Shown here in pieces: positions 29,155 to 54,105 of a DNA stretch of 64,000 bases (position 1 is the stretch's first letter; the number at the start of each line of letters is the position of its first letter). The position numbers were made by a program, and so were the translations under genes. A model generated the notes under the pieces. It had not been told where the DNA came from. It searched no databases and saw nothing but the letters and a program-made list of their open reading frames with translations. This DNA is from Sphagnum magellanicum (lineage: Eukaryota; Streptophyta; Sphagnopsida; Sphagnales; Sphagnaceae), in contig CM038915.1 in NCBI GenBank assembly GCA_021904315.1, forward strand, positions 14,012,001-14,076,000, written 5' to 3'.

Positions 29155-29830
29155 ATTTTGTAGGTAGGTGGGTAGGTCGTAAAAATGTAGGTAGGTAGGT
29201 GGTAACCTACCCTAACCTAACCTACCTACTTTAACCTAACTTCGTACAACCTATTTAACTTACTTAATCTAGTTTAACTACCTACCTTAACCCCTTAAGC
29301 ATATACATAGATTACGAGTATTAGAAATTGAACCCTTGACCTCCCTAATGCATAAACCAAATCTTTAACCAATGGACCACACCATCAAAAGATGTTCAAC
29401 TTTTGTCAAATTTTTTATTTCACATGTTTATTTTGACACATCATTACGAGACCATGAAGTATGTAGGTAGGTATGTTGTAGGAGGTAGGTGGGTGGGTGG
29501 ATAGCTAAGTAAGTAGGTACGTACGTACGTAATTAATAGGTATCGTGGGTGGGTGGGTAAGCCGATAGGCAAGTGGCCAGTAGGTAAATAAGTAGGTAGG
29601 GAGGCGGGTGGGTGGGTGGGTTGGTCAATAAACTAGTAAGTAGGTGAATGGATGGGTAGGTGAATAGGTTATAATAGGTAGGTGAGTGGGTGGTAGGTGA
29701 ATAGGTTATAATAAGTAGGTAAGTAGGTCGATAAGTTGTAATAGGTTGGTAAATAAGTTGGTACAAGTTGTAATAGGTAGGTAGGTAAGAAGGTTGTAGA
29801 ATATGGTAGATAGGTAGGTAGGATGCCCCA
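29155..29830. repeat. TAGG/GTGG microsatellite block with tRNA-like stretch (copy 3)
   Basis: Mirror of 8022-8697. Runs of gtaggtaggtgg and gggtgggtggg. The tRNA-like stretch is at 29312-29384 on the minus strand. Reverse-strand open frames in this block are repeat artefacts. Confidence 0.7.
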
Positions 29831-31289: not shown

Positions 31290-32800
31290 GAAAAGGCTAT
31301 CATAACCTCGTTGGTAAACTAAGCTAGGTAAGTTTAATAGGTTATGTTAAACTAAGTAGACCTACGTACATTGGTAGTTTAACTTAGCTTGCATACTTAG
31401 TTAATTGGCCTAAGTTATCTACAAGTAACAATAGGCTAGGTTATTAATTAATTGGTAAACTAATTAGGTAGTAGGTAGTAAGTAACATAGGTAGTAGGTA
31501 GGTTAATTAATTTATTGTGTGATAATGTGATCATGTTTTCATATTAATTAATTAATTCATTAATTAATTAGGTTAGGTACGTAATCAATTAATTAGTTAG
31601 GCTAGGTAGTATCTAATAAGTAGGATAGGTATTAATAGGTAGTAGGTAGGTAGGTAGGTAAGCTAAGCAAAAGGTATTTTATTTTGTGGATATGTCATAC
31701 TTTTTTGTATTAACTAATAGAATAATTAGTTATGTTAAGAATTTATTTTTTTTAACGTAGGGTAGGTAATTAATTTATTAGGTAGGTTAGGTAATAGATA
31801 GTAGGTATGTAACCTAGGTAGTATGTAATAAATAGGATAGGTACTAGTAGGTAGTAGGTAGGTAGGTAAGCTAAGTAAAAGGTATTTTATTTTATGGACA
31901 TGTCATGATTTTTTTGTATTAATTGATTAATTAATTACCTATGTTAAAAAAATAATTTATTAAATGCAAGCTAGGTAATGAATTTATTAGGTAGGCTAGG
32001 TAATAGATAGAAGGTATGTAACCTAAGTCGTATGTAATAAGTAGGATAGCTACTATTAGGTAGTAGGTAGGTGGGTTATAAGTTAAGCAAGAGGTATTTT
32101 ACTTTGTGGATATGTTGTAATTTTTTGTATTAATTGATTAATTAACTAGCTATGTTAAAAAAATAATTTATTAAATGTAGGCTAGGTAGTAAATAATAAA
32201 TATGTACCATAGGTTGTATGTGATAAGTAGGATAGGTAGTAGTAATAGGTAGGTTAAATTGTAAATACTTTATTATGTGGATATATGATTTAATAATAAT
32301 AATAATAATCATGATAATAATAAATTACGTAGCTTAGGTAATAGATAGTACGTATGTAGCTTAGATAATATGTAGTAAATAGGATAAATAAAAGGTAGTA
32401 AGTAGTTAAGTTAATTTGTAGGTAGTAGGTAGTAAGTAAAATAGGTAATAAATAGTTAGTGAAAATAGTAAATATTTTAATGTGTGGATATGTGATAGTG
32501 TTGTAATGTTGTAATGTTTCCCTTTCATTAGAATTATCCCATACCCTTTGTCTACAACTTCAAACTTGTAAAATATATAAATAGGTAAAGGAATCGATTG
32601 GATTCATGGTATGCATTATAAACATAGTGCATGTGTCATTTGGGATGAACCAATCAAAAGGCTCGACCCCAACAAAATAAATAGGATCCTACCTACTTAC
32701 TTAGCTTATGCTAAGTGACCTATTTTACCCTAAGCTAGCCTATAATAGATTACCTATTATGGTCTAGCCTAAGATAGATTATAATTAATTACTATAATTA
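31290..32800. repeat. TAGG array with ~200-bp higher-order unit (copy 3)
   Basis: Mirror of 5050-6560. It includes gtaggtaggtaggtaggtaa (31637-31660 region) and repeated blocks 'ggtattttattttgtggata' spaced ~200 bp apart between 31670 and 32280. Confidence 0.75.
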
Positions 32801-33146
32801 TAATATATCTTTTTTGAACAAATGGAAAATTTCCACATGTTTTATGGCCATTGGCTTTTTAAATTACCACATGGTTAAATCCTAACCACCCATCAATGGC
32901 ACATTTCATAACATGTGACTATCCCAAATGTAGTTGCAAATTGGGGTTCCACATCATACTAAGGATCATCCATGGCAATGGATGAGAAATTTTAGCCTAG
33001 TTGTAAAGTTTGCGACTACATTTTCAACTTCATGGCCATGTCATGTCTTTTGCAACTAATTGTTTTATGGCACTTCTCCAAGGCAACTAAGTTATTTTTG
33101 GTCACATGTGTCCATTAGAATTACCAATGAGTCATAAATTTAGTTA

Positions 33147-36100
33147 TTGATTTTCAAAAAAATTCTAATGAATGCGCATGGGAATGATGATGCAATATAT
33201 GGCAATGGTGTGAGAGGAACAAATTCAAATTTAGTGGGAAGACGTAGGTTTGAGTGGCAAGGAGCTAATTGCAATTTTGTAAATGATGGCGAGGTGTTCA
33301 TTGCAAAAGGTCATGTGGTTGTAATATGTGACCCATAAGAAGCAATTTTTTGATAATTGGCTTGCGGAGGACCATGTTGGGTTTTGCATCTTGTATTGTC
33401 CTACAATTGTGTTAGCATTGATGACCATTTGGAAATGGCTATTGTCTCAAATGATTATTGATGGGTATCCCTAGGAGAACATCTTAACAATCAATGGAAC
33501 CCATGGCCACATACCAAATGTCAATGATGTGGGAGCAATTGGTGTGAAGAAAAAAAAATTCCTTTCATAAGAAGAAGCGAAGTGTAGCTGACTTTGAAGG
33601 TTTAATTTCTAGAATTGAAAAGGTGTTGTCTAAGGAGTTTGTGCACAATGTGTTTGTGGCCATGTGTTGTGCCATGAATTGCTGTCAACATTTTCCTCAT
33701 GAAAAGACCTTGTTGTTGAAACAAGGGTACATTCACAAAGATAAGAGCCATAAAAATTATCACTAGTGCTTTGTTTTTCATGTTTTCATGTCAAAAATTA
33801 CATTAATATTGCACATTTTAAAAATATGTTTTAATGATAATGTTCTTGATATATTGTGGAAACATGTGCAATAATTTGAAATGAATATAATGAAATGTGA
33901 ATTCTCAAAAACATTGATTAGTCGTTGTAACTAGTGTTTTACAATGTTTTTACTACTTAAAAAAACTCATAAATGACTTTTAAAGGACTTGAAAATTACA
34001 TAATTTTGGAGAGACTTTTAAAACACATATTCACATAAGAGTACAATGTAACATATTTTTTTAGTCAAAAGGACTTTCTTGTGACTTTTCCCAATTTACA
34101 AATGGAATATTCCTAGTATATATTAAGAATCTTTTAGAATAAGTAGTCACCAAAGTCCTTATTAAAGGTGCACCCTTGGTTCTTTATTTTATGAATGTAT
34201 CCACAAGGATTTGGGAGTTCATTTTTTGAAGACCGTATGGTTTAGATATTCCAAAAAGGTTATATATGAGGGGAGACAGAAGGCGATAAAAATTTATCAT
34301 TATTCAAGGTTTAAACATCTATGAAACTGCTTGGTACCGGATCGTTGGTCTCTCAAGGTTGACAGACATGTTGTACAAATCAAATAGTAAATGAAATTGT
34401 CAATTTCTACCACATGGGAACAAAGGTACAGGGTGAAAGCACTTTAAGGTGGAGTACATAATCATGTCACAATTTGTTGGATTATCAATCATGGGCCATG
34501 GAACAAAATATGAATGAATAATTGTGAATAAGACTTAAAAAATAAATTACATGTGATATGATCACATTGTATGTATTTCATGAATAAATTTTGAGTTACC
34601 ATAACATGTTGGACTTTTGAAATGCCAAAAACCCTATGCCACAGTTCATCTCATATGATTTTGGATTCATTATGCTTAGCTGAGTGATTTTTTTTTACAT
34701 AAAAAATAATGTGATGCCGTTGATACAAAGGAATACAATTTGGGAAGATTTTGAAAACCATAAATTGAGATATTCAATGAAATATGAATTTTTTAATAAA
34801 GTCTTTCATTCATTTGAATTAATAATTCAAGTTTTCATTTGTTAAATATAAATTTTTGATATAATTATCTACAATTGATAAAGTCCATAAATAAAATAAT
34901 AATAATTTAGCCTTGCCATATGACTTATGTAATATAATATATTTTGCCATAGTGTAAAATGGACTTTTATCTTAACATTAGCATGGACTCCACATATGCT
35001 AGAAAGTATTCCACTTTAGAGTGCTTTCACCCTACACATGAATTACATATGTCAACCCAATAGGCGAAGTCAAATGTTTAGTCATTGATTGAATTGTTTA
35101 TAGATACGATGCTGTGTTAAATGAAAGTAATTTCAAATGGTAGACAAGATGTGCAACATCTTTTGCCTGAGAAAAGTCTGCATGAATATAGTGATCAAGT
35201 GAATTGTAGTGAATAATTGGAACTTTTAGTGTTTATCTAGCGATAAACGTCTAAAAGCCAGCATGTGTCTTTCGTGCAAATCTATTTTTCCAAAAATTGA
35301 AATTGCTTATTGAATGTATATTTGGCAAAATACATTTGTTGTCGAATAACTAATATTTTTTTGTTTTCTTTTTTGTGGGTTGGCAAATAAGCAAAGAATT
35401 ATGTATTAGAGGTATTTCTCAATCTACTACGAGTAGGTTGAGGAAAAGACATCATTTGAATGTCGATGTGCGAACACATGGCTCTGTTTTTGCGAAATGC
35501 ACTAGTTGTGAATCTCTCAAGGACTTGATATCCAAATTAAGAAAAATAGTAATGAAGCTCTATAGTATGAAGTGAAGTTAAGAAAACATATCTTATACCA
35601 AGAATAATGTAAAAAAAATACCATATTTGGAAGACAAAATTAATGCGATCGAAGGATGAGTTCCTTTACATTATTCATGACAAGATCGACCATGCAAAAA
35701 TTGCACTTGCAAGGTTGCAAGTGTGAAACAAAATGATATCTAGGCTTAGACAACTACCCATTACCCTCACGGGTATGATAACATGGTCATGGGGATGAGA
35801 GATATGCACAATATTCTAATGAGTTGTGGCCAAATGATCCCAATTTCACGATTGGGTCCTTCTTGCAGCTTTTGCGGACTTTGGAGGCGGTTTTTATTTT
35901 AGAGTTGAAATTATTGTTTGAACACCCCCTGTAGAATTCATTATTTGCACATCTTTTGCAAAGGAAACTGTGTTGCATATGTCAATTACACACCCCGAAT
36001 CAAACTATTGGTGCAAAACCTTTGTCGAAAATTTTGTTGCTTCAAATGGGTAATTGCGTGAAAGGCAATAAGAATCAACATTTGTTAATGTTTCTATCAT

Positions 36101-36899
36101 TGTTGAAGACGAGGGATGTGTTTGAGGAGGTCAAATTGGGATTCTTATAGTTGGCCATACACATGAGGATATAGATGGATGCTTTGGTTATTTGTCAAAA
36201 AAGTTAAGGGAGTAAAACAATTACATTTTAGTAGATTTGATGAAAGCTTTCGCAATCTCACAGCAAAAACCATTCATTCCTCAATTGGTTCAAGAGATTC
36301 CAGATTTTAAATCTTGGGTCTTAGGTTGTTTGAAGAATGGCCTTGAAATGTTGGTAGGGCATATTGATATGCATCTTTTTAGATTTATTATTAATTTGTT
36401 AGGTTGGCCTATGATGCAATATAGAGTTTCCCCCATAGATCCTAATAGGAGTCCAATAGATGGGCCACCGATTAGATCGTGGAAAGTTAATCCAAATGGT
36501 TCACCAAAGTTGCATGCTAGGGTCCCAAGTCTTGTTCTATATTGCCTAATGTGGGGCAATGATGCATTGAGGTCAGTGGAGAGAAAAAAGTTTATAAGTT
36601 CTAGACTATCCAAATACGTGGATTTTTGGAAGGTGGGCATTGTGCAAAGTTCCACATATGAAATGAAGATGAAACCATATGTGGAGTATTGGGAAGATAT
36701 CTTGTTGCATTTGTCAAGACCGTTACCCCCTCAAAGTACCATTTTTTTGGAGGGCTTTTGGCCTTCAAGCAATTGGAGGTCCAATTATGCTAGGGTTTCA
36801 TTGTCAACTGTGATGGATGGGTCCAAACACAATAAAAGGACCCATTCAAAATGTAACCAATACTTAATTTTTCACATCTTAAATTACTACGTCAAATGA
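33147..36899 (+). pseudogene. DUF7869-like transposase remnant, copy 3
   Basis: Pieces in order: 33147-33338 (EWQGANCNFVNDGEVF); ~33610-33760 with CCAMNCCQHFPHEKTLLLKQ; the MITE insertion; 35375-35575 with FAKCTSCESLKDLISKL; ~35655-35950, frameshifted, with GHGDERYAQYS-like and WPNDPNF-like words; 35956-36150 with LLLQMGNCVKGNKNQ and FEEVKLGF; a +1 shift into VGHTHEDIDGCFGYLSKKL; then the 220-residue frame 36237-36899 (LGWPMMQYRVSPIDP, SSNWRSN). The order QxDNCxxxNKN...VGHTHEDID is what I associate with DUF7869-type proteins of transposon origin. The expected D before NC is G here. At least two frameshifts and several stops are visible. The family call is from memory and needs a profile search. 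Confidence 0.6.
34431..35032 (+). mobile_element. MITE with GGGTGAAAGCAC terminal inverted repeats (copy 3)
   Basis: 602 bp. The left end reads GGGTGAAAGCACTTTAAGGT; the right end read on the minus strand is GGGTGAAAGCACTCTAAAGT. TACA lies on both sides (34427-34430 and 35033-35036), a plausible short target duplication. There is no coding capacity. The same element sits at the same place in all three copies, so it inserted before they diverged. Confidence 0.7.
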
Positions 36900-36950
36900 A
36901 TGTTAAAAAAGTTTGGTGCATTTGTACAAAAATGATTCTAATATATTATG

Positions 36951-37823
36951 TGATGCATTCCCAACTCCTTGAAGGACTCAAATGTGAGTCCAAGTAGAAG
37001 ACAACGGAAGAGGGAGGAGTTGGGGCATGTTCTTTAGTTCACAGCACTTTGAGGGGTAGAGGGGCGTGTCGGAGCTTCGGGATGGGACTAGGAAGAGTTG
37101 ACAAGCTTCACTCACTCACACGGGCCTGCACACAACCCACACAAAGTGGTTAGTGCATAGTTGGAGCACCTTTGGTGCTAAGACGAGCCACAGGCAGCAC
37201 GGACACACTAGATTCACCATGGCCCGGACTTGGGGGAAGCCACCACCTTCCCCCTTATAGTATACTCTGTGGCTAGCCACGGAGCCCACATCCAAATGGC
37301 TTTTCTCTCTTGGGACTCCCGAAATTGCGCCAGTTGGGACTCCCGCGACTTTGGAGCCCCATAACATTTTGAGCACATTTCGGGTCGATTCCCGACTTTT
37401 TTTGATCGGGAGTCAAATTGGCAATTTGACTCCCGGCCCTTCTTTTGGCCATAACTTGTGCTTTAGATGCCTAAATGAACAATGGGAGCCCATTTTAGAC
37501 ATCTGTGTTCCAAGAGCTTTCCAATGATATAAAGAGCGCCACGAGCCATTGAGTTTTGACCCCCTGAAAATCGCTCTTTGAAGTTTTGGGAGTCCATCGG
37601 GACTCCATCTCCCAAAGTGGGAGTTGCCTTGGGAGTGTGAGGGTTCACTCCCTCATACTCCCTCACACTTTCTTACATTCCCTGGAATATGTGATGTGAT
37701 TCCCGGGCTTCTTTTTGGCCCGTGCCCTTGCGACCTCTTTGCCTTGACTCCCGAGCTTCCTCTTGGCCCTCAATCTTGTAACCCCTTTGCCTTGGTTGCG
37801 AGCCCAAAGCTAAGGTTGCGACA
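36951..37823 (-). repeat. Solo LTR (873 bp) nested in copy 3
   Basis: Mirror of 29-901. On this strand it begins TGATGCATTC and ends TTGCGACA, with the 5-bp duplication ttatg at 36946-36950 and 37824-37828. Copy 2 shows the uninterrupted site (atatattatggaagcattt). Frames inside it (for example 37116-37376 minus) have no recognisable content. Confidence 0.8.
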
Positions 37824-38269
37824 TTATGGAAGCATTTGGTTAAGTTTGAGATGAATTCAATGAACATAAAATACCTAAAAACATTTTAAAAGCAATTTCA
37901 CTTGTGTTTTTGCTATGCAAAAGACTTTCTAAAATGTGAAATTTTAAAACTTTGAAAATTCAAGGTGTGTACATTTGAAAATTCATAATTTCAAAACTTA
38001 AAGAGTGTTTGACCACATATAAATGGGGTATAATGTACATGATGTATTAAACAAAGTTGTAGTTTGTATTAGATTAAATTCAACTTTAAAAAATTAAGAT
38101 TGTTTTGTATGATTTCAAATTGTCATCATTTTTCAAAATGAAACATAGAAACTACAAGGATTCTATACATTTTTACAAATTAATTTTACTCAAATGATTT
38201 TTTTTTGGACTTCTTACAACAATTGTAATCATTTTTCATAACGAGTTGCAAAAAAAATCATTCAAAATT

Positions 38270-38628
38270 TCATTTGTATGAAAAAGTTCTTTTGGGGAAA
38301 AAGACATGCAAGACTAATGTAAAGTAACGCTTGTGGCTCCTTTGATGTTGTTTTGACCCTTTTGGCCAATTTCTACTAATGAGAACATGTGCATTAAACC
38401 ACACTTTCTTGTGCTCTTCATAAATTTGTTTTGTGATAAGATTCCTATCCAATCTTTCTTCAACCCATTCTTTAAGATGCTTGGAAATGCATGGAGCTTG
38501 GAATGGCATACATGAAATTCAATCCAAATCAAATGCTCCATGGTTGATGTGCCATCCTCACAAGTGTGTTCCATGTGGTACCATGCAACTTTTGTAGCAT
38601 CTAGATATCTCAAAAACCTTTTCACCAA
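38270..38628 (-). pseudogene. Unidentified coding remnant with one frameshift
   Basis: Two overlapping minus-strand frames (38314-38628, 38270-38509) read as one protein if a frameshift is assumed near 38500. N-terminal words are RFLRYLDATKVAWYHMEHTC; the second frame has ISKHLKEWVEERLDRNL and QIYEEHKKVWFNAHVL, rich in charged helical residues. It resembles a transposase or domesticated-element N-terminus in style, but I do not recognise the family. The surroundings are AT-rich and non-coding. Confidence 0.35.
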
Positions 38629-38629
38629 A

Positions 38630-39975
38630 AACTTTGCAATGTAATCATATTTGTTTGATTTCTAATGCACTGGATCATGGTGGTAGTCTTTTGGACCAAA
38701 GTTGCATTGGTACCCACAAACACACTAAAAAGGTTAAACATTCACTTCATAAATTGAATGCACCTTCAATTAATGCGGAATAATATGCTAATACTTATCA
38801 AGTATGACCCATATGACCACGAATATTTGGCCTTTACTTCTTTTCTAGTGGATCAAATCACCATATGACTCATTGGCAAGGTGCATCATTGTTGTTCTTG
38901 ATTTTGTCAATGTACTCATTCACACTTGCCCATGGTATCCAAGTAGTTATGACATCCACCATGTGCCAAAATGTGCAGCACCTAAACACCAAATCAACAA
39001 TTTCCAAATTAGAACATAATATCCAATATCTATATATATATATATATCTCACAATCTTTTTGGTTTTTATATGCATTACCAAGGATTGTGTTTTTATAAA
39101 GATTACAATATTTTTGTTATCATTATAATATATATTACAATAAGCAAATTGCAAATGTCATGTAATACCTTTATGGACCTCCTTTTGTTTTGTTTAAAAG
39201 TAAATTTAAAAATGAAGGAAAAAGATCTAATGTTATTCAAAAGTTTGGCTCTCCAATTCAAATGTCTTACTTTAAAATGAGGGCTCCGCTCCCTTAGAAC
39301 CCAAAACCTTCAACCCTAACCATCTCTCCTTCTTTATCGTTGTAATCTAAAACATTTAACGACCCTATACACTTTCATGTAAGTGCACCATTAAAAGAAA
39401 ATGACTCACAATGCCATGGGTGTTGGAGGGACAACTATTAAAAGGAAGGGAAAATAATTTTGGACATGGTTCCATAAAGAGAGGATCCAAATTACAAAGA
39501 GGACAAGGTTCCATAAAGAAAGGATCCAAAACCAACAATAATGGTAACAAAAAAACAAATAGTGGGAGGCGACCTTTCCCCTTTACTCTAAAGGGGTAGG
39601 GAGCTTCATCCACTTGCCTCCATCCACCATGGATGGAATGGTGGATGGAAGCAAATGGAGGTAGCTTCTCAACACGATGGTCAATTAGGCCCAGCCCATG
39701 CATTGGTGGGTGTGGAAATTTGGATTGATACCTTAGTGCCTTGGCCAATTCAACGCTAATTATGTTATTTTCAGAAATGTTGAAATTTTCAAAAATTATT
39801 TTTTTCAAATCAAAAAATATTGTGGAAGAAAATAGTGAATATTTAAGAACATTCCATTTGTTGAAATGAATGTTCCAAAATTAACCAATTATTCGACGGA
39901 CATCTATTATTCAATTATGATCAACCATTCTTTTATTATTATTATTATCTCAGCCCAACCAAACCGCAACTATTC
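38630..39975. other. Intergenic stretch with (AT)n, no secure gene
   Basis: A short (ta)n run lies at 39030-39050. The 147-codon minus-strand frame at 39365-39808 contains an internal near-duplication (pieces reading DPFFMEPCP and DPLFMEPCP) and has low-complexity flanks. I do not consider it a gene. Confidence 0.4.
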
Positions 39976-40045
39976 TTTTAGTACGACAAATGCTCTAAGA
40001 AAGGAGCTCCATGTACTCTTTGGACACCATAAACAATGGGCCCTC
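39976..40045 (+). repeat. Left 70-bp inverted repeat flanking the CVNH gene
   Basis: Begins TTTTAGTACGACAAATGCTC and ends CAATGGGCCCTC. It matches the reverse complement of 43135-43204 at 67 of 70 positions by eye. The outer ends (ttttagtac / gtactaaaa) face away from the gene, the geometry of transposon terminal inverted repeats. Confidence 0.8.
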
Positions 40046-40388
40046 TTATAATGCGCATGGACAAATTGTTTTCAAACTTTTGGGAAATCCACCAAATGAT
40101 GTCAACACACAGCCGCGGCAGATAAAGACCATTCGGCTCTTCCGATACATCACTGCCAGTCAATGCCTATTCTTGGTTTCTATCCATTTTGAGACTCTGG
40201 CGGTTTTGGCACCGGTGAAACTGTGGCGAACAAAGAAAAACCGAGATCCTGCGGGATGATTCAACTCAACATTGGCAGCCTTTTGAGACTGTCAGGAAAA
40301 ATAAAGTATTTTGACATCCCAAACCGCAATTTGAAGTGGGAAAAAGAAGTATATTTGTGGGCCTCTTCCTATCTTTAATTTATTTTAA

Positions 40389-40396
40389 TGACGTCA
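40389..40396 (+). promoter_or_regulatory. TGACGTCA motif upstream of CVNH
   Basis: Palindromic TGACGTCA followed by TGAC, about 290 bp upstream of the TATA box. Plant TGA-type bZIP factors bind such as-1/CRE-like sites, often in stress- or salicylate-responsive promoters. Its role here is inference from motif and position. Confidence 0.35.
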
Positions 40397-40679
40397 TGAC
40401 TTAACTGCGTTCCTCGCAACTCTGAATGCAGTTTCGCAAGCCTTAATTATTTTAAAAGTTCTTTTCAACTCCGTGCAAATTTGGGGGGACCACAGAAGTC
40501 TCGCGCCCTAGATTTTCTCAGCAAAGTATTGTCGAAGTTACTAATGTAACCCACTTTTTCCCCCGCACACACCCCACCGCGTGGAGTTCACGCGACATCC
40601 GCCCGCACGCGCGTATAGTCCTCCGTCACACTCTACCAGCCAGTCGTCCAGGGGTAAGAGGCGATTGAGCTCTGGTACC

Positions 40680-40687
40680 TATATAAG
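40680..40687 (+). promoter_or_regulatory. TATA box of the CVNH gene
   Basis: TATATAAG in a GC-richer setting, 138 bp before the start codon. A transcription start near 40710-40720 would leave a leader of ~100 nt without upstream ATGs in good context. The only strong TATA in the region. Confidence 0.6.
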
Positions 40688-40817
40688 CAGATGGGATCGA
40701 GCTGGGAGTATCATTCATCTGAAGCATTCCCAACTCATCTACTCCTCCAGCTTTCTTTCAATACCATCCGCAGCCCACCATACTCAGCCGCTCAATTTCA
40801 GTCTTGATCAGATCGTC

Positions 40818-41820
40818 ATGGCTTCGCAGAAGATGGCGCTTCTAGCTGTGGCTGCAGGGCTTCTCTGCATGTCGGCATTACTCAACGGAGCTGAAGCCCA
40901 GGTGAGTGCCGGCCACCAACAGCAGTTGGAAATTGATACCAGTGTTCATAGTTATTGAGCTAGCTAGACGGCCATATCTAAATATAATTCCTTCTTGTAC
41001 GCTCTGGATGCCTGATTTGCGCTTGTTCCATGATGTCGTGATTCTCCAATGCTCTTGATTATCACTGTTCCACGGCTCCTGCTTGTAACCGCTCCTTCCG
41101 TTCCGGCCTAATGCTTGAGAAATGTGATTCTTCATCGGCCGTGTTCATGATCTCCAGTTCTCTTCATCTCTTGGAGTGCACTGGATTCTGGATCCATACC
41201 AATTGCGGGTGGATTTGACAAGTCTCATGTGTAGTATAGTGCTGTCCTGGGGACGTCTTGTTGGACACTTAAAGGCGTCCAGCTCGATCTATTTGGACGA
41301 GCTAGTTCCCGCCCAGTACGTAGCCATAGACTGCATGTGGTGCCCGAATGAACATGCCTCATGAAATATGCATCGTCTTCGTATTGTTTGTTTCTTGAAT
41401 ATGCATGTAACACAGCTCCACTAGTTTCCGCCGGACGAAGATACAGATCATGACTACTAGTTCGTGGGATGGGTATGTTGATGTGGCATCCATCACCAGT
41501 GTGGCGGTTTCACAGCATCTTGCCAAGCACCATTCTCAGTCACGGGAAGCGTCGTATCCGCCAACTGCGCAAACGACGCCGGAGTTTTCGCCTCCTCAAG
41601 TTTAGATCTCAATCCCTTTATAAGCAACGACAACGGGAACTTGGTGCAGGGAAGCGACTACATTGCGACGTGTACGCCAGAAGGATTTGGCCTAGTTGGA
41701 TCGCCGTTCTTCATTTTTGCTAATTGCCCACAGGACGACGGCACTGTTGTTCGCACGTCTTTCGACATAAATAACAACGTCTCCAACGACAACGGGGTTC
41801 TGGCCTGGAACAGTTGTTAA
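40818..41820 (+). CDS. Secreted cyanovirin-N homologue (CVNH), two exons
   Basis: Exons 40818-40901 and 41500-41820, joined in phase 0 across a 598-bp intron (donor CAG|gtgagt, acceptor caccag|TGT), encode 134 residues. Residues 1-28 form a signal peptide (hydrophobic core MALLAVAAGLLCMSALL, then GAEAQ), so exon 1 is essentially the secretion signal. The 106-residue mature part matches the CV-N fold length (101 in the cyanobacterial protein). It is an internal duplication: SSLDLNPFISNDNGNL (61-76) parallels TSFDINNNVSNDNGVL (114-129). The canonical disulfide cysteines appear as C36/C51 and C86/C104. C29 and C134 at the two ends are extra. CVNH proteins are mannose-binding lectins; a secreted plant member would plausibly bind glycans of microbes or cell walls. 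An in-frame TGA at 41483 rules out reading through the intron. No lesion is seen, so the gene is probably functional. Confidence 0.88.
40902..41499 (+). other. Intron of the CVNH gene
   Basis: 598 bp with a strong donor (CAG|GTGAGT) and acceptor (CACCAG|T). It sits exactly between signal peptide and mature domain. Open frames inside it on either strand have no recognisable content. Confidence 0.8.
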
Positions 41821-43134
41821 AATTGCTTGCTGCCCGACGAGGATGTTGCAGTCGGTGACAAGCAGGAAGTTGGTCGTCAGTCGTCGATCAGGGGAACTTT
41901 TCTAGTCTTGCTTGTTCCCCAGTTCGAGGAGGAAAATAATATAGCCAGTAGTATGATGCGGGCATGCATGCCGGTGTGTCATTAACATGCATTAGTATGC
42001 TTGTGCATTCGTACATAGCGGCTGTAGATTGCTGTTGTGGAACATTCTTTCTGAACAAATTAGAGCCAGCTGTTCAGTATGTAATATAAATTTGCGATCC
42101 ATAATTTCTATTGCAACCGGAATTTATAAATTCATGCGTTTCCTCATTTCGTATGCTTTTGTATGACTAAGTTGGAGCTCTGGGAGTGATCAGCTGGCCA
42201 TTTTTTTCTCAGACTCGCTTTATGAGTGTGGCGGTCCTTTCAGATGACCTTGGGGAGCGGGGATGCGGGGAGCAGCACTGGAATGGTACGAGACACAGAA
42301 ATTTGTCCTGAATTGCTCCATGTATTTGGAGTCAGTCAAGTATTTGGTGTGGATCTGCTTGGATGCAGAGTGACTGTTGAAAGGTCTAAATGTAAATGAA
42401 ATCCGGAAAGCTTGGAACCTGGGAAGTAGGACCCATAATCAACATGTGTAGTACAACCCTTAATCAAGTCCTTGAAAAGACTCCATTCTTGGCCTGATCG
42501 GATCGCCTGCCTTCAAACTTGACTGGAACATGTTCACTGACAGCCATGACTTGAAATGCACATTTTCTCTCCTTTCAGAAATCAAAAGGTACACAAACGG
42601 CTTGTACCGACCTTCCTCAAAAAGCTTTCTTGTATTTTGAAGTCTACTGTCTCAATGTCTGCACGATGTAAGAGGCATAGACATTCCTGAAACAAGGACA
42701 AGAAGGATAAAACTATGTAGATGTATGTCTGCAAGATCAGATATTCACATGTTTAAAAAACAAAAAGATCATTTCAAACAAAAAACGGTAATGTTAACAA
42801 GATATCATGTACGTCTGAAATTTTTATAAGTGTTAACACGGTTGAGATCTGTGAACGTTACACTATTACACCCTCCATACTTTTACAAGTATTAAAACTT
42901 GTGTTTTTGTAAGCATTAGCAAGACACACTTTTTAAAATGTCAAACTGACAATTTTTTAAACATTAGCTAGACACACTTATAAATGTAAATTTTGGTTAC
43001 ATACATTGTACAAGTGATAAACATTTCAATATTTGAAATTCCATTCCAAGTTATAACTCCCCAAAATGCCAAATACAGGGTAGACCGCATGGTGTTCGAA
43101 CACTTAAGCTACAATTTGCTCGTCGTTTTTGTAG
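41821..43134. other. 3' region of the CVNH gene and unassigned sequence
   Basis: Possible polyadenylation signals are aaaataat near 41933-41940 and aatataaa at 42082-42089. Beyond ~42150 the sequence is moderate GC with no recognisable frame. An AT-rich part at 42770-43020 has the words tttttaaacattagctagacacac and ttttgtaagcattagcaagacacac, a degenerate ~60-bp repeat. Confidence 0.4.
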
Positions 43135-43204
43135 GAGGGCCCATTGTTTATGGTGTCCAAAGAGTAGGTGGAGCTCCTTTCTTAGAGCATTTCTCGTACT
43201 AAAA
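43135..43204 (-). repeat. Right 70-bp inverted repeat flanking the CVNH gene
   Basis: Partner of 39976-40045 in inverted orientation, ending with gtactaaaa. The three differences by eye are one at arm position 12 and two near position 37. No convincing target-site duplication adjoins the outer ends (left tattc, right atcga). Confidence 0.8.
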
Positions 43205-43678
43205 ATCGACAAAAATGGATGAGAGGTGAAAAAATTACATCCCCAAGAGTGGGGAAGGGTTGTTTCTACAAAAACTTATTCTCAATCGAACAATTCGTGT
43301 AGCTTATTGTTGAACCTTTTGAAAATTTCTTAAATATTATTCTATTTCTTTTAGAGTTATGAGATGATTTGTAGAGCTTGACAAGGCATTCTTATAACAT
43401 TTTAAATCACTCAAAATGGAAAAAAAAAAAAAAAAGATTTGCCAAAATGTTCAATGATTGGCTAATGCTTGATGATGGGTTGGTCTATCCCAACAACATC
43501 ATTAAAATTAAAGTACAACAAAACATGGGTGCATTCCCTGATGCAATTTTATTAAATTGTCATTCTAATGAAGATAATAATATGGTCCATGTCACAGGAG
43601 CACAACACATGTGTATTGTCCCATCACACATGTGTTTCACATCTCACTATTTTTGACACACATCTATTACATGCAATG

Positions 43679-43959
43679 TGTTCGATTCATAGAAATAAAA
43701 GATACATACATTGGAAAGAAAACCTCTATATGTAGAAGAATAATCTAGCTAATCTATATTTAATCTACATATAATGTATTCTTGATCTACAACATATGTA
43801 TGGTGAAACACAGTGCCACGCCATGATCCTAATTCAGGATAACATATGAGTGAACTACGTGAAAGATAACATTGATAAGTCTAACAATTCCTATGTAACA
43901 TTTAATTTAATATATAAAGATAACTTTTTTTCTAATGTTAAGGGTGTCATATGTCAACA
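43679..43959 (-). repeat. 3' LTR of the Copia element (281 bp)
   Basis: On the + strand it starts TGTTCGATTCATAG and ends ATATGTCAACA, so it has TG...CA ends. It shares gtgaaacacagtgccacgcc with the other LTR. Next to it at 43960-43975 is a purine tract when read on the minus strand (the PPT). Confidence 0.82.
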
Positions 43960-43975
43960 CCCTCTCTCGCTCCTA
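43960..43975 (-). other. Polypurine tract of the Copia element
   Basis: On the minus strand this reads aggagcgagagaggg immediately before the LTR start TGTTGACATA. This is the position and composition of the plus-strand primer. Confidence 0.65.
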
Positions 43976-43984
43976 ACATACTCT

Positions 43985-45456
43985 AAGGCTTTAGCCCATG
44001 GTGTTTTGTGACAGAGAATATTTTTTATTCCTTAGATAGGTCATCTATACATATTACACCAATAGCTTATCCAAGAGTTTCAAATCTTGTTCTATCTAAA
44101 GGTTTAATGAATATGTCACCTAGTTGTGGAGATGTAGGAATGTATTCAGCATTGATGGATCCATCTTCTACTTTTTTCTAATAAAGTGGTGCTAAATTTC
44201 TATGTGTTTGGACTTTGAATGAAAGATTGGATTATTCCATAGTTTTATACTACTCCAATTATCACACAATAATGTGATAGGTTGTTCTTGTTTTAGGGTG
44301 CAATCATGATACAAGGAACCAAGACTATGTTCAGTGTAGTAAAAACTTACACCCTCCTAACTTTCAAAAATCATTGAAAAAGTTCTAATGATTGGAATAT
44401 AATGAAATCAAGTTCATGCTATTTTTATATTTTTGAATTTGCATTTTAATGTTCTTAATGTAATTTTAAGATGTTTCATTGGTTATAAAACGAATTGTAA
44501 GCAATGCACAATCAAATGTTGAATGGGAACTGAAACTTTAAACGTCCTTTATCTTATGTAAATTTAAACCATTAATTTTAAATTTCTATTGATGGCCATA
44601 TATTAATGATTATGAAAGTTAGTAGTGATAAAATTTTGAATATACCTTCTAATATAATATGGTTATCCACTATAGTTTTTTTTAAATATTTGAACGTGCT
44701 TTTGATCAACTAAACTACATAATTTGAAAGACTTTTTCGAAGACAAAATACGTTTTGTCATGTAAGCAAAGGCAAGGGCAAGGGTGCATTTCCATGAAAA
44801 TTGGATGTGTTTTGTGGGATTATTTGTTTTTTTTTGTTATATTTAAAATAATGTTGGAGAAAGTCATTATTGATAAACTTGATGTATAATATATCATTAA
44901 GGGTTTTAAACACAAATATATATTTTTAATGTTGAGATTTAAGAAACCAAGTTCTAACATCAAAAATGAAAACACATAGACTTCTCTTTTGATCCTTCAA
45001 AGAGTGCCTCGTATTCAATTTTAGTCAATGAAGTTGCAATAAAAGATTGTCTTTTTGCACTACAAGATATTGATGATGAACCTAGGTGAAAGACAAATCC
45101 TAACATTGACCTTCAATGATCACCATCTCCTACCCAATCAAAGTCTACATGTACCTTCTAAGTGTGCAATCTCCTACCCTTTGGAGACATAAGCCATAAT
45201 TGATTATCCTCTTGACATACCGAAGGATTTGGTTTGTAAGAGCCATATTATGGGCCTTTTGTGGTGGACTCAAGAATCTATTAGTGATACTAACTACTAC
45301 AGAAATATTTGGTCTAATGTGGGTTAAGTAAATAAGCTTTCTAACTTTCCTTTTATACAAAGTTTCATTAATGAATAAGCTTTTCATGTCTCCAATTAGT
45401 TTGAAATTATGGTGCATGGGAACATTGCATGGCTTATTCCATGCCAAACTCAACAA
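43985..45456 (-). pseudogene. Copia RNase H region, interrupted
   Basis: 45145-45456 reads the connection domain between RT and RNase H (KLIYLTHIRPNIS, then QILRYVKRIINYGLCL). The RNase H start follows at ~45145-44990 (DFDWVGDGDH, FVFHLGSSSISCSAKRQSF, then TKIEYEALFEG), where the usual DSDWAGD has become DFDWVGD and a stop sits before RSM. The C-terminal part is at ~44335-43990 (LLCDNWSSIKL, SKHIEI, FIKPLDRTRFE). Between them lies a ~0.65-kb AT-rich insertion, also present in the 11702-12816 fragment. Non-functional. Confidence 0.75.
44340..44985. repeat. AT-rich insertion in the Copia RNase H region
   Basis: It separates the coding pieces TKIEYEALFEG and LLCDNWSSIKL, which are nearly adjacent in Copia RNase H. 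The same block is at ~11860-12510 in the other Copia fragment, so it predates their divergence. The exact ends and any target duplication could not be fixed by eye. Confidence 0.5.
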
Positions 45457-45599
45457 GCATATCTAAAATGTACCCTTTCTAAGTCAAGAATATGCAACAA
45501 GGTAGTTATACAAATTATATTCCTAAGTAGAATACAACTTTGCTTAAGTTTGTCATCTCAAATGTTGCCAACAGTTGTTCCTTCAACTATTGGATCTTT

Positions 45600-46264
45600 T
45601 CATCAAAATTTCCTATAAGAAAGAGATCATCAACATATAACAACAAAATTAAAATGCTTCCATTTTTAATATTGTAGTACATGTTATGTTCATGATCATT
45701 TTTCATAAGACCTTGGTCCTTAAAAAAATTATCAATCTTTTGATACCACACTTTAGGAGACTATTTCAAGCCGTACAAGGCCTTCTTCAATTTGCAAAAT
45801 AAATGTTCCTTCCAAGGTTTTATAAAACCTTTTAGTTGATGCCTGAATATTTGTTCATGCAACTCTCCATGTAAGAACATGGTCTTGACATCCAAATGGT
45901 TGATGTTCCAATCGCATTGTGATGCAAGCATACACATTAGTCGTATTGTGCTCCACTTTATTATTGGGGCAAAAGTTTCCATAGAATCCAAACCATTCAA
46001 TTGCTCAAAACCTTTATCAATTATCCTGGCTTTTAATTTCTTCACCTTCCTTTTAGCATTGTATTTTTTCTTATACACCCATTTTGAAGATATAGGTCTC
46101 TTTCCATCAGGTAGAAGCTGAAATGTCCAAGTATTATTTTTATGGATAGAGTTCATTTCCTGTTGCATCACATCATTGCAACCTTCATGTTGAAGAGCTT
46201 CTGCCATAGTCTTAGGTTCATGAATCGTGATTAATGCACTTACATAATCTTTCATTATAATCAA
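45600..46264 (-). pseudogene. Copia reverse transcriptase (RVT_2) remnant
   Basis: The frame 45761-46264 holds the start of the domain: NTWTFQLLPDGKRPISSKWV, then NHLDVKTMFLHGELHEQIF containing the first catalytic aspartate, then KKALYGLK. After a frame break the YVDD box follows at 45626-45637 (ILLLYVDDLFLIGN). Copy DNA synthesis would need both motifs and both are preserved, but stops and frameshifts around them make it inactive. It continues towards the connection domain at 45456. Confidence 0.85.
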
Positions 46265-46311
46265 AGCTCCTCGTAATCAAATAGGCCTCCTAATGCTTGT
46301 ACAACTTGGTG

Positions 46312-47053
46312 AGGTGAAAGCATGGTAAAGTATACCAATTGGTGATCCCTACCAACAAATAAAAGTAATTTTGATTCTTTTGCATTTTAAGCACTTCAAT
46401 CATGCCATAAATTTTTGGTGTATTTATCATATTAAATAAACCATGTATGATTCTTTTTAATGTATATTATTACTCTCACTAATTTATTTATTTATTAAAA
46501 GTTTATGACTCTAAATAATATCGCATATTTTCCAAATCAAATAACTCAAATGATGTGTTACTAATGTTTGAGCCATTATGCACCTTGATACACATTTTTT
46601 GGAATTTGAATTTTTGGATTATGACAATGTGAAGCTCTTTAAAAATAAGTTTTCCATAAACTCAAATTTGGCATCCAAAACATGTTTTTTGATATGATAC
46701 TAAAGTGCATTGCATGTGCTTGATTCATTAAACCATGCCCCAAACCCTTTCAAAATGCAACATATGAGTGAAATTTTCAAATAAATTTTTTTTGACCTAC
46801 TTTCAATCTATTTTTTCACAAGAGGACAAATTGGCAAATTTTGCAAAGTAGATTGAAAGTAGGTTTTAAAAAAGGTTGATACAACTTTTGAAACTTTCAA
46901 AAACTTCAGCATATCACATTTGATGCCTTCATGTAGTCCAAAAGGACAATATCTTAAGGCATCACCTACTTTCTAATCTACTTGTCACAAATTTGACGTG
47001 TTTTCGTACTTGAAAAGATTACTTTTTTGGTATACTTTAGCATCTTTTCACCT
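46312..47053. mobile_element. MITE nested in the Copia element, AGGTGAAAGCATG inverted ends
   Basis: 742 bp. The left end is AGGTGAAAGCATGGTAAAGTATACCAA-like; the right end on the opposite strand starts AGGTGAAAAGATGCTAAAGT and also runs to ATACCAA. That makes inverted repeats of ~27 bp with three or four mismatches. tggtg occurs just outside both ends. The terminus matches that of the MITE in the DUF7869-like copies, so they are one family. There is no coding capacity. Internally there is a short hairpin around 46790-46865 (attttttttgacctactttcaatc and its complement). Confidence 0.7.
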
Positions 47054-47544
47054 GGTGGTCCTCTTGAGAAGTTCATACATCAACAGTGGAAGCAAAAATT
47101 GAATTATGAGAATCAAAAGATGTTAAAGTCTCTGAATTCTTCTGGTTCTCACAAACAAAATTTTATTTTTCAAGTTCTTTGGACCTAGGACCGATGTAAT
47201 CTTTCTTACAAGTGAAGTTTCTTTAACAGGTGAATCGCTACTTGTTTTAAATATGTTATCTAGTTGAACATGGATATTCTTATCTAAAGATGTTATTTCA
47301 AATTAGACTACAATTTTAGAGTTATTTTCAATAGGATAAGGTTGTAACAATGGATAGCCTCGTTCTAATTCGTCAAACTTGACATCCTTGGATATTATCA
47401 CTTTTTTTTGGTGATAAGTTCAAAACATCTATAAACTTTGCTATGCATATCATAGCCTACAAAGACACAACAAATTGACTTTGCATCAATTTTTTTTCAA
47501 TTCTCTTTTGGTACATGTACTTAAGCAACACAACCAAAAAAAAT

Positions 47545-48245
47545 TTAAATGCGTAAGTTAGGTTGTTTACCCAAAAATGTTTCTTTTAGTGTAGCATTCG
47601 GATTTGCCTTTGTCAAACTATGGTTGAGTAAAAATGCCATAATATTTATAACTTTTGTCCAGAGATAAAAAGGCAACCAATTTTCCAAAGCAATATTCTT
47701 GGCCCTTTCAGTTAGCAACCTATTTTTCCTTTTAGTAACCCCATTTTGATGTGTGTGGGATTGTGTCAATTGACAACCAATCCCATGTTGTTTGCAAAAT
47801 TCATTGCATGTTCCCAAAGTAAATTCACCTCCTCTATTTATTCGCAAACAACTAATTCTTGCATTGGTTTTTGTTTCCACAACGTGCTTAAAATACTTGA
47901 ATTTGCTAAAGGTTTCATTTTTCTTCTTCATGAAAAAAACTCACACTTTCCTTGAAAAATCATCTGTGAAAATAACAAAATGTTCAAAGTCACTTAATGA
48001 TGCATGTTGCAATGGGCCACACATATCTAAATGAACAACTATAAGACTTTGGTTGACCAATTGGTGCTCTTTCATGGGATTTTTTCTTTCTACTACTTTC
48101 TAAGTAAATAGGCTTGACAAATGCGATTAAAATTGATACTTGAGCTTGGGTGTCCCATTTGTTAATCTTTTAACAATCAAATGATGCAAACTCTAGTAGT
48201 TCAAATGACAAAGTCTTTTATGCCACAACTCTACAAAGTCTAGTT
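47545..48245 (-). pseudogene. Copia GAG-pre-integrase and integrase remnant
   Basis: From about 48245 down: ELWHKRLCHLNY (pre-integrase zinc-binding motif), then VVHLDMCGPLQ and FVIFTDDFSRKV, the integrase core start with its first catalytic aspartate region. The frame 47545-47931 follows with RINRGGEFTLGTCNEFCKQH (second aspartate position changed: the usual SDNGGEF reads INRGGEF) and QNGVTKRKNRLLTERAK carrying the glutamate-region helix. WLPFYLWTKVINIMAFLLN matches the integrase C-terminal half. Several stops. The protein would insert cDNA into the genome; this copy is inactive. Confidence 0.85.
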
Positions 48246-48269
48246 CAACAAGGTTTGCTTTGAACTATC

Positions 48270-51200
48270 ACTATGAAGAATCACGTCTGTCGAAACCACA
48301 CTACCCTACAACTAGAGCTCAAAAAACAACTCATATATAACTATTGTGCAACTATCCTTGGGTATTACAACTACTATGCAACTATCCCCCTTAGAAATAT
48401 AGGGAATTAATGAAAACATTGTCATGTCAAAAAATTAGTTAGTTGTAATATAGTTGCAAGTGAGTTGAAAATGAATTTTCTATACAATAATTTATATGCA
48501 CCATACATACATTCATAGTCAACCATGTTTGATTTTTAAGTAATTCCATGTGACAACTATTTTAGAATTATTGTAAATGTGCCATTAACACAACAACTAT
48601 GTTGCAACTAATTTTCAACTATGATTCCCATTGATACAACTAATAGAGCCATTGGTATGCCACTATTGAATTATTAATGTTCAACTATGTTGTGACTATT
48701 GTGCAACAACTTATAATTTAATAAGGATACAAATTCACATGTAATATTTTATAAATAATTATTGGTTCAATAATTTGACAATTAAATATTGGGCATATTC
48801 ACACTCAGGGTACCACTTTTTGACCACTAAACTCAAGGATTTTGTTTTTGCTATCTTCCAAATATAAAATCTAAATGGAATAAATTTAAGTGAGAGATAT
48901 TGAATAACTCAAATTATGATCATCTTCATGGTGGTGGTGATTTTTCACATGTATATGTAATTATGCATAAATATTTTGATAGAAAACTAGAAATGTAGAA
49001 AATAGTTGTATAGGTTTTTATATACAACTTAACATGTTTTTTTGCATCAAAATTTTCTGCACATTTTATCGACATGGCCACAAATTCTAAGCCTAGTGAA
49101 TACAACAAATCAAACAAATGGGGGAAAAAAAAATCATTTTCTTTAATGCCTTTTTAGAATGGAGTCTCCAGACTTCAAGATTATTATATCATATATTATT
49201 TAATCAAATGCATTATATGAACATTGCTAAACATAGATGTATGAATTATTTATCCATGAAAGAAAATTGAAGTCAATTACATTGTTTAATACATTCCTTT
49301 TGATTCCTTTAAGATGAAAATTGTAGTTTAGACAAAGATTCAAATTACTTAAAAGGACTCAAAAGGATCTATATTATATCTAATTTATTCTTAAATTTTC
49401 TTAATAAATTTACACGACATCATTCTAATTATAATCATATACCAATCCCCTATAATCATGAAATAATAAATGTAATAAAAATCCAAAATAGTCCTTTACA
49501 ATCCTTTTTCCGTTAAACCATCCTTTTGGGTACCCTAATTATCAATATGCCATATTAATTGTGCTTAATACACTTAATTATTATGAATTTATTAATTATA
49601 ATACGTAATTGAATATTAATTTGAATAAATAAATGTAATTTATATAATTGGTTTAAAATTAACTACCTAACTAATTATGTTCATTTGATTGAATAATATG
49701 GATGTGTAAGAACAATAATTATTCATCAAATAATAATTATATGAATATTTATATAAATTGGGAATACATAATAAAAAATTAGAAAAATTAATCAAAATAA
49801 TAATTATTTCATCAATAATTACTAGATCATTAATTATTTAAATTCATTAAAAAAAATAATTATCTACATACATATCATTAATTGAGATGTGAAATTAAAA
49901 ACAATGTGTATATTACATTAAAAATTCAATGTGGGTCTACATATGGATATGTTTATTTATACCTTGATGTTTTTTACCCAAATTCTTTTTTAAAATTTTT
50001 TTTGGTAATTAATTATTTTTCAATAAAATATTAAATATTAAATATTAATAAGATGTAATTTAATTACTTATTATGAACTAATTACTTAAACTGAATAATT
50101 AACTATGAATATGAATTGTAAATCAATTTGATTCAAATAATTTTTTTTTAAAATTCAATAATAAATGACTAATTATATGAATTTAGATTATTAATCATTG
50201 GATAATTGATTATTTTAAAACAAATAATTTTTTATTTAGTTAATTACAATAACTAATTATCTGATATTAATGATCTAAATTTATTAGCTAATTAATTATT
50301 TGATTTAGATTAATTAATTTAGATAACTATTTAATTAATTAATTAATTAAAATAATCAATCCAAATAATTAGTTTCCAAATATTTAATTCAAAAATTTAG
50401 TTTTCAGATAAATTATTTTGATAATCAATTTTAAAATAAAATAAATAATTTTAAATAATTATTTCATATAGTTAAATATTAAATAATTAATTCACATATA
50501 TAAATATCAAATAATTATTAATTTAATTGTATGATTTTACATAATGAAAAACAAACACAAAGCATGTGGGAAATGTTTTTTGTAATTACAACTCAAATTA
50601 CAACTTAAAAATAACTAAAATATTAACCCATCCAAATTATAACTAAAAAACAATTAAAAAGTTTAACACATCTAAGTTGCAATTAGAAAACAACTAAAAA
50701 AATTAACCCATCTAAGTTGCAATTGAAAGATTTTTCACATATGTTTTGTCTTTGAATCCAATGTCGCAAACTACATAAGGAAAATGTCTTCTCTTATGTT
50801 TTCACATTAAAATACACATGCCACTTTGGGATGAGCTCAAAAAAGCTTAACCCCAGAGGCAAAGCATAAAATAAAATATATATTTACATAATTATTATTT
50901 AATTCACCTGGTCTTGTATTTTCCTACCTATTTACCTACCTACATAAGTAAATAGGTCCTATTTTTCTACCTACCTACGTATAGTTATGTAATGACCTAC
51001 CTAGCTATTAAAATAGGTTTTTTTCTTTTAAATTCAATTAATATGCCATATTGTACCATCACTAACAATCATAATAGACGATTGAGATCAATGTTTCAAA
51101 AATCATTTAAATCCAAAAAATTTCATGATGCCACGTGTTAAATTTTAATGGATGGATGAAAATTAGTAATGTCAGCATGACAGCATGGTTGTAGTTGTGA

Positions 51201-54089: not shown

Positions 54090-54105
54090 ATGTGTTCTAA
54101 TACCA
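54090..54105 (-). other. Primer-binding site of the Copia element
   Basis: Immediately inside the 5' LTR the minus strand reads TGGTATTAGAACAC. The usual Copia PBS, complementary to initiator methionine tRNA, is TGGTATCAGAGC; two transitions separate them. Confidence 0.75.

What the first reader, a model, noticed from the sequence alone, without database searches (positions are those of the whole stretch)
40818..41820. A secreted cyanovirin-N homologue in a plant genome, with the signal peptide on its own exon
The sequence shows a 28-codon signal-peptide exon spliced in phase 0 to a 321-bp exon encoding a complete, internally duplicated CVNH domain without lesions. It is not found as a single open frame because exon 2 has no start codon. 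CVNH lectins are sparsely distributed (cyanobacteria, filamentous fungi, a fern), so a plant gene with its own secretion exon is notable.
Basis: partly seen in the sequence, partly recalled or inferred. Interest (0 to 1): 0.85.

Follow-up and report, generated by a model that had tools for sequence, protein, structure and literature searches.

The report
Mirror-image lectin gene pairs in moss
The window carries a real, probably secreted, sugar-binding (cyanovirin-type) protein gene of what is probably a moss; such genes are already known from mosses, but this one sits on one arm of a DNA palindrome with an identical twin on the other arm, and the same mirror-image pairing recurs across the genome and looks maintained by copying between the arms.

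Summary
Exons 40818-40901 and 41500-41820 join in phase 0 into a 134-aa protein: signal-peptide-like start plus one complete CVNH domain (Pfam PF08881, 53.9 bits against a cut-off of 24.5; AlphaFold2 pLDDT 94.7). The novelty claim fails: cyanovirin lectins are reported from bryophytes, lycophytes and ferns (2019). The genome is probably Sphagnum divinum (size match only).

The gene lies on the 16.5-kb arm of a palindrome (99.9% identical arms) whose twin gene lies about 3 kb outside the window. Fourteen of 23 CVNH matches form seven divergent inverted pairs on five contigs. In 7 of 7 pairs the lectin exon is identical, although these loci differ by 4-23% in protein. Shared flanks, bounded substitution-free tracts and a flipped spacer point to gene conversion and crossover between arms. 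Between loci, a few lectin sites show excess amino-acid change (LRT 22.4; at most 5.7 in 60 null simulations). Germin-like cupins share the habit (33 of 36 equal-score neighbours inverted); four of six other families do not. Splicing, expression, sugar binding and read-level support were not testable.

The parts
40818..40901 (+). Exon 1 of the CVNH gene: 28 codons, signal-peptide-like, ends ...AEAQ
   Evidence: hydropathy; identical in the twin
40902..41499 (+). Phase-0 intron, 598 nt
   Evidence: GT donor in 19 of 21 copies of the family; no transcript evidence
41500..41820 (+). Exon 2: complete CVNH domain (106 codons) and stop
40680..40686 (+). TATATAA, possible TATA box 138 nt before the ATG
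   Evidence: string search; function inferred
28759..45281 (+). Right arm of the palindrome holding the gene; partner arm is C9:14004572-14021093
   Evidence: 99.903% over 16525 columns, 11 mismatches, 2 gap openings
1..9093 (-). Inner part of the left arm; it continues 7.4 kb to the left of the window and holds the twin gene at C9:14008036-14009035
9094..28758 (.). Spacer of the palindrome; holds a flank-A piece (11702-12815) and diverged flank-B pieces (about 12812-20872) of the CVNH locus
26996..40051 (-). Sequence homologous to flank B of the C12 palindrome (starting with the outer 76 nt of the lost second arm at 39976-40051)
43129..43204 (+). Outer 76 nt of the ancestral arm, 3' side of the gene; inverted match of 93% at 39976-40051
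43205..55608 (+). Flank A, shared in blocks with the C9b, C9c and C12 CVNH loci at about 93-96%; the outer part lies beyond the C9a arm
41587..41589 (+). Codon 30 of exon 2, a site with posterior above 0.8 for omega above 1 (others: codons 32, 69, 82, 83)

Best explanation
A probably secreted CVNH lectin gene of a (probably Sphagnum) moss, carried as an identical inverted pair on a palindrome. An ancestral divergent pair (flank A - gene minus - spacer - gene plus - flank B) was copied as a segment to several places. In each place the two arms keep exchanging sequence, so the two lectin copies stay identical while the loci drift apart; crossover between arms can flip the spacer. The window's own palindrome is a secondary one: a locus in which spacer and second gene were largely lost (flank A - gene - remnant - flank B) was mirrored as a 16.5-kb unit. 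Between loci the mature lectin shows an excess of amino-acid changes at a few sites while the signal exon changes little. The likely role is an extracellular glycan-binding protein under pressure to vary, most plausibly in defence against microbes. Shown: gene structure in the DNA, fold family, palindromes in the assembly, bounded identity tracts, shared flanks, one flipped spacer, codon-model excess. Inferred: splicing, secretion, sugar binding, defence role, conversion as the cause, the organism.
For: Fold and family. Seven of seven equal-score neighbour pairs divergent. Exon 2 identical in 7 of 7 pairs, while in C5b intron, upstream and downstream differ by 2.3, 4.9 and 3.8% and in C17c/d intron and upstream differ by about 6%. 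Substitution-free runs of 538 nt (C5b, 75 substitutions elsewhere) and 884 nt (C17c/d, 58 elsewhere), 0 of 20000 uniform draws as long. C12 and C9c share flank A on the left copy, flank B on the right copy and the arm end at +2384 to +2387, yet arms are 99.0-99.5% alike within and about 95-96% between loci. C17d groups with C17b in its 5' part (support 100) and with C17c in its 3' part (95). Spacer of C9c inverted relative to C12 and C9b while the left flanks are collinear. Flank A (1201 nt): the near-full matches among the 40 scored candidates are all at CVNH loci. Site models: LRT 22.3 and 24.3 on two trees; 10.6 to 26.1 when C9d, C12x, both or C7 are left out; maximum 5.7 in 60 null simulations.
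Against: For C9a (the window) both copies carry flank A and for C7 the flanks do not match those of the others, so these two pairs alone could be fresh inverted duplications. M0 omega 1.49 is not significantly above 1 (p 0.15), and several close locus pairs have dN/dS below 1. Without C12x the LRT falls to 10.6. Conversion between loci was not modelled. Only 3 of 13 domain A and 5 of 15 domain B pocket positions, recalled from the CV-N literature, are identical, so mannose binding is uncertain. No read-level check of the assembly was possible.
Confidence: 0.7

Rival explanations
1. Each pair is a recent, independent inverted duplication; no gene conversion is needed.
For: Fits C7 (99.97% arms, flanks unlike the other loci) and the 16.5-kb palindrome of the window, where both copies carry flank A.
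Against: C12 and C9c share distinct flanks A and B, spacer and arm ends, so the pair predates the split of these loci. In C5b and C17c/d identity is confined to tracts over exon 2, and C17d is a mosaic.
Confidence: 0.15
2. The identical arms are an assembly or polishing artefact of the long-read genome.
For: The Sphagnum divinum assembly, if this is it, used noisy PacBio CLR reads assembled with MECAT and polished with ARROW on the long reads (passages of PMC9946827); reads from one arm can be placed on the other.
Against: Arms differ at their ends: 8 of the 11 substitutions of the C9a arms lie in the outer 600 or inner 220 nt. C5b and C17c/d keep 58-75 substitutions beside perfect tracts. Flanks differ on the two sides in C12, C9c and C5b. 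The source was described as a haploid genotype, so haplotype duplication is unlikely. Families with no equal-score pairs exist in the same assembly.
Confidence: 0.08
3. The CVNH pair is the cargo of a transposable element with long terminal inverted repeats.
For: The arms end at a common outer sequence of 76 nt in C9b, C9c and C12, and copies are scattered over five contigs.
Against: Kilobases of flank travel with the pairs; no target-site duplication was seen by eye at the arm ends; no transposase in the 8 window ORFs scanned, which gave only copia-type matches in 2.
Confidence: 0.07
4. The excess of amino-acid change in exon 2 is relaxed constraint or decay, not diversifying selection.
For: M0 omega is not significantly above 1; one paralogue is broken; C9d is 53% different in the 300 nt upstream.
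Against: M2a holds without C9d, without C12x and without both (p 2e-6, 0.005, 0.003). Amino-acid change exceeds silent change in exon 2, for instance 28.5 to 2.5 between the window copy and C7, which decay alone does not give. Six cysteines are invariant in 12 of 12 aligned copies.
Confidence: 0.4

Closest known systems
Cyanovirin-N homology (CVNH) lectins; fern CrCVNH (2JZJ) and CtCVNH
   Same: Pfam CVNH match, single two-repeat domain, same fold (Foldseek E 7.9e-9 to 2JZJ); CtCVNH also has a predicted signal peptide.
   Different: An extra cysteine pair at the two ends of the domain (C1, C106), few recalled pocket residues kept, expansion as palindromic pairs.
Bryophyte and fern cyanovirin family of Van Holle & Van Damme 2019
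   Same: Same family, reported in bryophytes, lycophytes and ferns.
   Different: In the sections and passages read there is nothing on palindromic arrangement, conversion or selection.
Palindromic gene pairs under arm-to-arm gene conversion (primate sex-chromosome palindromes, Drosophila hsp70 inverted pair; both recalled)
   Same: Inverted, nearly identical arms with genes, arms diverging at their ends, inversion of the spacer.
   Different: Here several palindromes of one lectin family on five contigs of a probable moss. Whether any contig is a sex chromosome was not tested.

Membership tests
CVNH (PF08881) | Profile match above the curated cut-off | tested here: met
   53.9 bits against 24.5
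CVNH (PF08881) | Cyanovirin fold made of two sequence repeats | tested here: met
   Model pLDDT 94.7, pTM 0.83, with the same order of elements in both halves; 25 Foldseek matches at E 0.001 or better, cyanovirin-type (microvirin 2Y1S counted as such from recall)
CVNH (PF08881) | Cysteines equivalent to C8-C22 and C58-C73 | tested here: met
   All four align; the bonds themselves were not tested
CVNH (PF08881) | Mannose-binding pocket residues | tested here: inconclusive
   3 of 13 domain A and 5 of 15 domain B positions identical to CV-N; the list of positions is recalled
CVNH (PF08881) | Glycan binding | not testable with these tools
   Needs a glycan array
Palindrome under arm-to-arm gene conversion | Inverted arms nearly identical, differences at the ends | tested here: met
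   Five pairs with arms of 98.96-99.97%; end-loaded differences in C9a, C12 and, at one end, C9c
Palindrome under arm-to-arm gene conversion | Arms more alike within than between loci although the pair is older than the locus split | tested here: met
   C12 and C9c. Not decidable for C9a and C7
Palindrome under arm-to-arm gene conversion | Bounded tracts or mosaics | tested here: met
   C5b and C17c/d tracts, C17d mosaic
TIR transposon | Moves without its flanks, with target-site duplication | tested here: not met
   Flanks A and B are shared by the loci; no duplication seen by eye
TIR transposon | Transposase | tested here: inconclusive
   None in the 8 window ORFs scanned; non-autonomous elements lack one

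The most novel reading that the evidence does not exclude
In this haploid moss, near-identical neighbouring copies of some gene families survive mainly as inverted pairs: direct copies are lost by recombination, inverted ones are only flipped and re-copied. Palindromes then act as conversion machines outside sex chromosomes that let a favourable change in a secreted, defence-type protein (CVNH lectins, germin-like cupins) reach both copies at once and drive fast divergence between loci.
Probability: 0.3. Interest if true: 0.78.

Novelty: new variant of a known kind. Interest (0 to 1): 0.58.

Why it matters
A moss CVNH gene by itself is ordinary. What would interest a specialist is a natural series of palindromes of one gene family in one genome, with shared flanks that place the pairing before the copying, bounded tracts over the coding exon, and a sign of selection on the mature lectin. 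That makes conversion between inverted repeats directly testable in a haploid plant and raises the question why identical direct copies are scarce in the same families. The 18 gene copies at 91% or more (17 over nearly the whole 1321-nt query, one over 255-1321) may also be hard for annotation because the coding exon has no ATG.

Tried and rejected
Prokaryote relatives for a phylogeny: two scans of genome contigs, with exon 2 and with the 12-row alignment, confirmed none, so no tree of origin was made and horizontal transfer stays untested. Further CVNH copies inside the window: none besides this gene. Rfam families and tRNAs in the window: none. Papers: ten searches, seen as listings unless said otherwise. 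The listings (moss, palindrome, inverted repeat, gene conversion, Sphagnum; 14 papers; 2 papers) show, by title, nothing on nuclear palindromes in moss. The Sphagnum genome paper PMC9946827 has no 'palindrom', 'gene conversion', 'lectin' or 'cyanovirin' in its main text (term search; passages seen, not the whole text). Four moss papers asked for by DOI are not held, so earlier reports of inverted gene pairs in Physcomitrella cannot be ruled out. Only passages were seen of PMC5485960, PMC5028893, PMC7010833, PMC13120521 and PMC11333200.

Idea that palindromic pairs are peculiar to CVNH: rejected by the cupin control. Idea that they are everywhere: rejected by light-harvesting, HSP20, LTP_2 and thaumatin. 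The peroxidase list (202 matches, 150 of 240 candidates scored, list cut) was read by eye. Equal bit score is a proxy for identity. The pooled test printed is not used, because it mixes families of unlike depth.

Full report
WHAT WAS CLAIMED AND WHAT IS THERE. The window reads as described: exon 1 40818-40901, intron 40902-41499, exon 2 41500-41820, phase 0. The 134-aa product matches one Pfam family up to E 1, CVNH, E 3.4e-14, 53.9 bits against a cut-off of 24.5, and PDB cyanovirins by sequence. An AlphaFold2 model of exon 2, made with 12 copies of this genome, has mean pLDDT 94.7 and pTM 0.83. Foldseek against the PDB gives 25 matches at E 0.001 or better, all cyanovirin-type (microvirin counted as such from recall), the fern CrCVNH among them. 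Exon 1 has a hydrophobic core and ends in AEAQ at the splice; no signal-peptide predictor was at hand.

WHERE IT IS. The window is C9:14012001-14076000 of a genome of 438,994,042 bases in 31 contigs. The published Sphagnum divinum assembly is 439 Mb (passages of PMC9946827; table row in PMC13120521). The species is inferred from size alone.

IS A PLANT CVNH NEW? No. Van Holle and Van Damme 2019 report the family in bryophytes, lycophytes and ferns, and a fern gene with a predicted signal peptide was expressed in 2013.

THE PALINDROME. The gene lies on an inverted repeat: C9:14004572-14021093 and 14040759-14057281 match at 99.903% over 16525 columns, with 11 mismatches and 2 gap openings. Of the 11 substitutions 6 lie in the outer 600 nt and 2 in the inner 220 nt. 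The twin gene encodes identical exons and lies left of the window at C9:14008036-14009035.

THE FAMILY. Pfam CVNH gives 23 matches in the genome, 29 candidates scored. Fourteen form seven neighbour pairs of equal score within 50 kb, 7 of 7 in the order minus, plus; three further neighbour relations within 50 kb have unequal scores. The pairs lie on C5, C7, C9 (three), C12 and C17. A 1321-nt DNA search finds 18 copies at 91% or more, 17 over nearly the whole query and one over 255-1321, and several fragments. Five pairs were read in full: arms C9a 16.5 kb 99.90%, C9b 5.5 kb 99.71%, C9c 3.1 kb 99.49%, C12 2.8 kb 98.96%, C7 2.9 kb 99.97%. The other two, C5b and C17c/d, were read over 3.3 kb a copy. 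Exon 2 protein identity to the window copy is 96, 92, 94, 94, 77, 88, 87, 87, 81, 53 and 45% for C9b, C9c, C12, C5b, C7, C17a, C17b, C9d, C12x, C1x and C5x. C1y, with an in-frame stop, was left out.

WHY CONVERSION. First, C12, C9c, C9b and C9a share flanks and spacer in long blocks, mostly at 91-97%. In C12 and C9c the left copy continues into flank A and the right copy into flank B, and the arms end at +2384 to +2387 in both; C5b also has one copy with A and one with B, over the 110 nt available. The pair therefore existed before these loci split, yet arms are 99.0-99.5% alike within a locus and about 95-96% between. Second, identity is bounded. In C5b, 75 substitutions over -320 to +2300 leave a run of 538 nt without any, over exon 2. 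In C17c/d, 58 substitutions leave 884 nt without any, from just before exon 2 to the end of the compared stretch. Neither run was reached in 20000 uniform draws. Third, C17d groups with C17b by its 5' part (support 100) and with C17c by its 3' part (support 95). Fourth, the spacer of C9c is inverted relative to C12 and C9b while the flanks are collinear, as a crossover between arms would do. In C9b, 2.5 kb of flank-B sequence lies inside the left arm beside a 532-nt duplicate. In C9a both copies carry flank A, and the sequence just upstream of each gene is a short piece of spacer, then the outer 76 nt of a second arm, then flank B. I read this as a locus that lost spacer and second gene and was then mirrored; this palindrome could be a fresh duplication. 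C7 is likewise ambiguous.

SELECTION. Between loci, amino-acid change in exon 2 often exceeds silent change: window copy against C7 28.5 to 2.5 (dN 0.126, dS 0.036, intron 0.064), against C12x 24.2 to 2.8, against C9d 16 to 2. Against C17a and C17b dN and dS are about equal, and several pairs, such as C9c-C12, C12-C5b and C17a-C17b, lie below one. My own codon-model code on ten loci gives M0 omega 1.49, not different from 1 (p 0.15), and M1a against M2a LRT 22.3 on the exon tree and 24.3 on the intron tree. Leaving out C9d, C12x, both, or C7 gives LRT 26.1, 10.6, 11.4 and 11.2; 60 simulations under M1a reached at most 5.7. Sites with posterior above 0.8 are F30, S32, P69, T82 and V83. Aligned to CV-N they fall at Y29, T31, S67, Q79 and F80; from recall of the CV-N repeat, 29 and 80 are matching places in the two halves. 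In the site models branch lengths were fixed up to a scale, and conversion between loci was not modelled. I put diversifying selection at about 0.6 against 0.4 for relaxed constraint.

PROTEIN DETAILS. The four CV-N cysteines align. C1 and C106 are extra and invariant in 12 of 12 copies; a third bond tying the ends is inferred. The CV-N hinge residue, proline 51, is glycine here. Of the pocket positions I recall, 3 of 13 and 5 of 15 are identical, so sugar specificity is open.

CONTROLS. Cupin_1 (137 matches, 150 of 153 candidates scored): of 36 equal-score consecutive neighbours within 50 kb, 33 are inverted (19 divergent, 14 convergent) and 3 direct; of 38 with unequal scores, 18 inverted and 20 direct; Fisher p 3.9e-5. 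One cupin pair read directly has an inverted match of 920 nt at 99.89%, cut by the end of the stretch. Legume lectins (32 matches) have 1 equal-score neighbour pair, inverted. Light-harvesting (48) has 1, direct; HSP20 (28) has 2, direct; LTP_2 (40) and thaumatin (18) have none. Peroxidases (202 matches, list cut) show by eye two inverted pairs (one by exon 1 only) and one direct pair of equal-score exons within 50 kb. So the habit is strong in CVNH and cupins, slight in two families and absent from four. That direct copies are removed by recombination is my inference.

TRANSPOSON? A common 76-nt sequence ends the arms, but kilobases of flank travel with the pairs and no transposase was seen among the 8 window ORFs scanned. 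Flank A, searched with 1201 nt, has its near-full matches at CVNH loci; shorter parts are dispersed repeats, and one 596-nt match on C11 has no known CVNH beside it; 40 of 1038 candidates were scored.

VERDICT. Gene: real, a new member of a known family. Arrangement: a new variant of a known kind, palindromic gene pairs under concerted evolution, here as several loci of a probably secreted lectin.

Noticed in passing
Own genome; L040 (C4:5254700-5258700) is one example: Germin-like cupin genes show the same habit: 33 of 36 equal-score neighbours within 50 kb are inverted, against 18 of 38 with unequal scores.
   Followed up: partly
C17:9426998-9770972 (own genome, outside the window): A cluster of 13 legume-lectin-domain matches, 12 of 13 in one orientation, 5 of 13 with a TAA inside the match.
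   Followed up: no
window 45761-46273 (-) and 52374-52856 (-): Copia-type remnants in flank A: reverse transcriptase RVT_2 (E 4.7e-35) and Pol_BBD (E 5.4e-14).
   Followed up: no
C9:14201605-14207634 (L021): Left arm of the C9b palindrome: 2.5 kb of flank-B-type sequence inserted next to a 532-nt duplicate of the arm end, as if copied from the other arm.
   Followed up: partly
C17:421543-423746, C14:12578256, C3:17050739, C7:19681105, C19:4600740 and 4611712: Fragments related to the CVNH gene, 69-87% identical, probably decayed copies.
   Followed up: no
C9:14326372-14329672 (L039): A single CVNH copy (C9d) whose 300 nt upstream of the ATG differ by 53% from the others while its intron differs by 1-5%, as if it lost the usual promoter.
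   Followed up: no
window 41500-41820: The domain has an extra cysteine at each end, invariant in 12 of 12 aligned copies, and glycine at the CV-N hinge position 51.
   Followed up: partly
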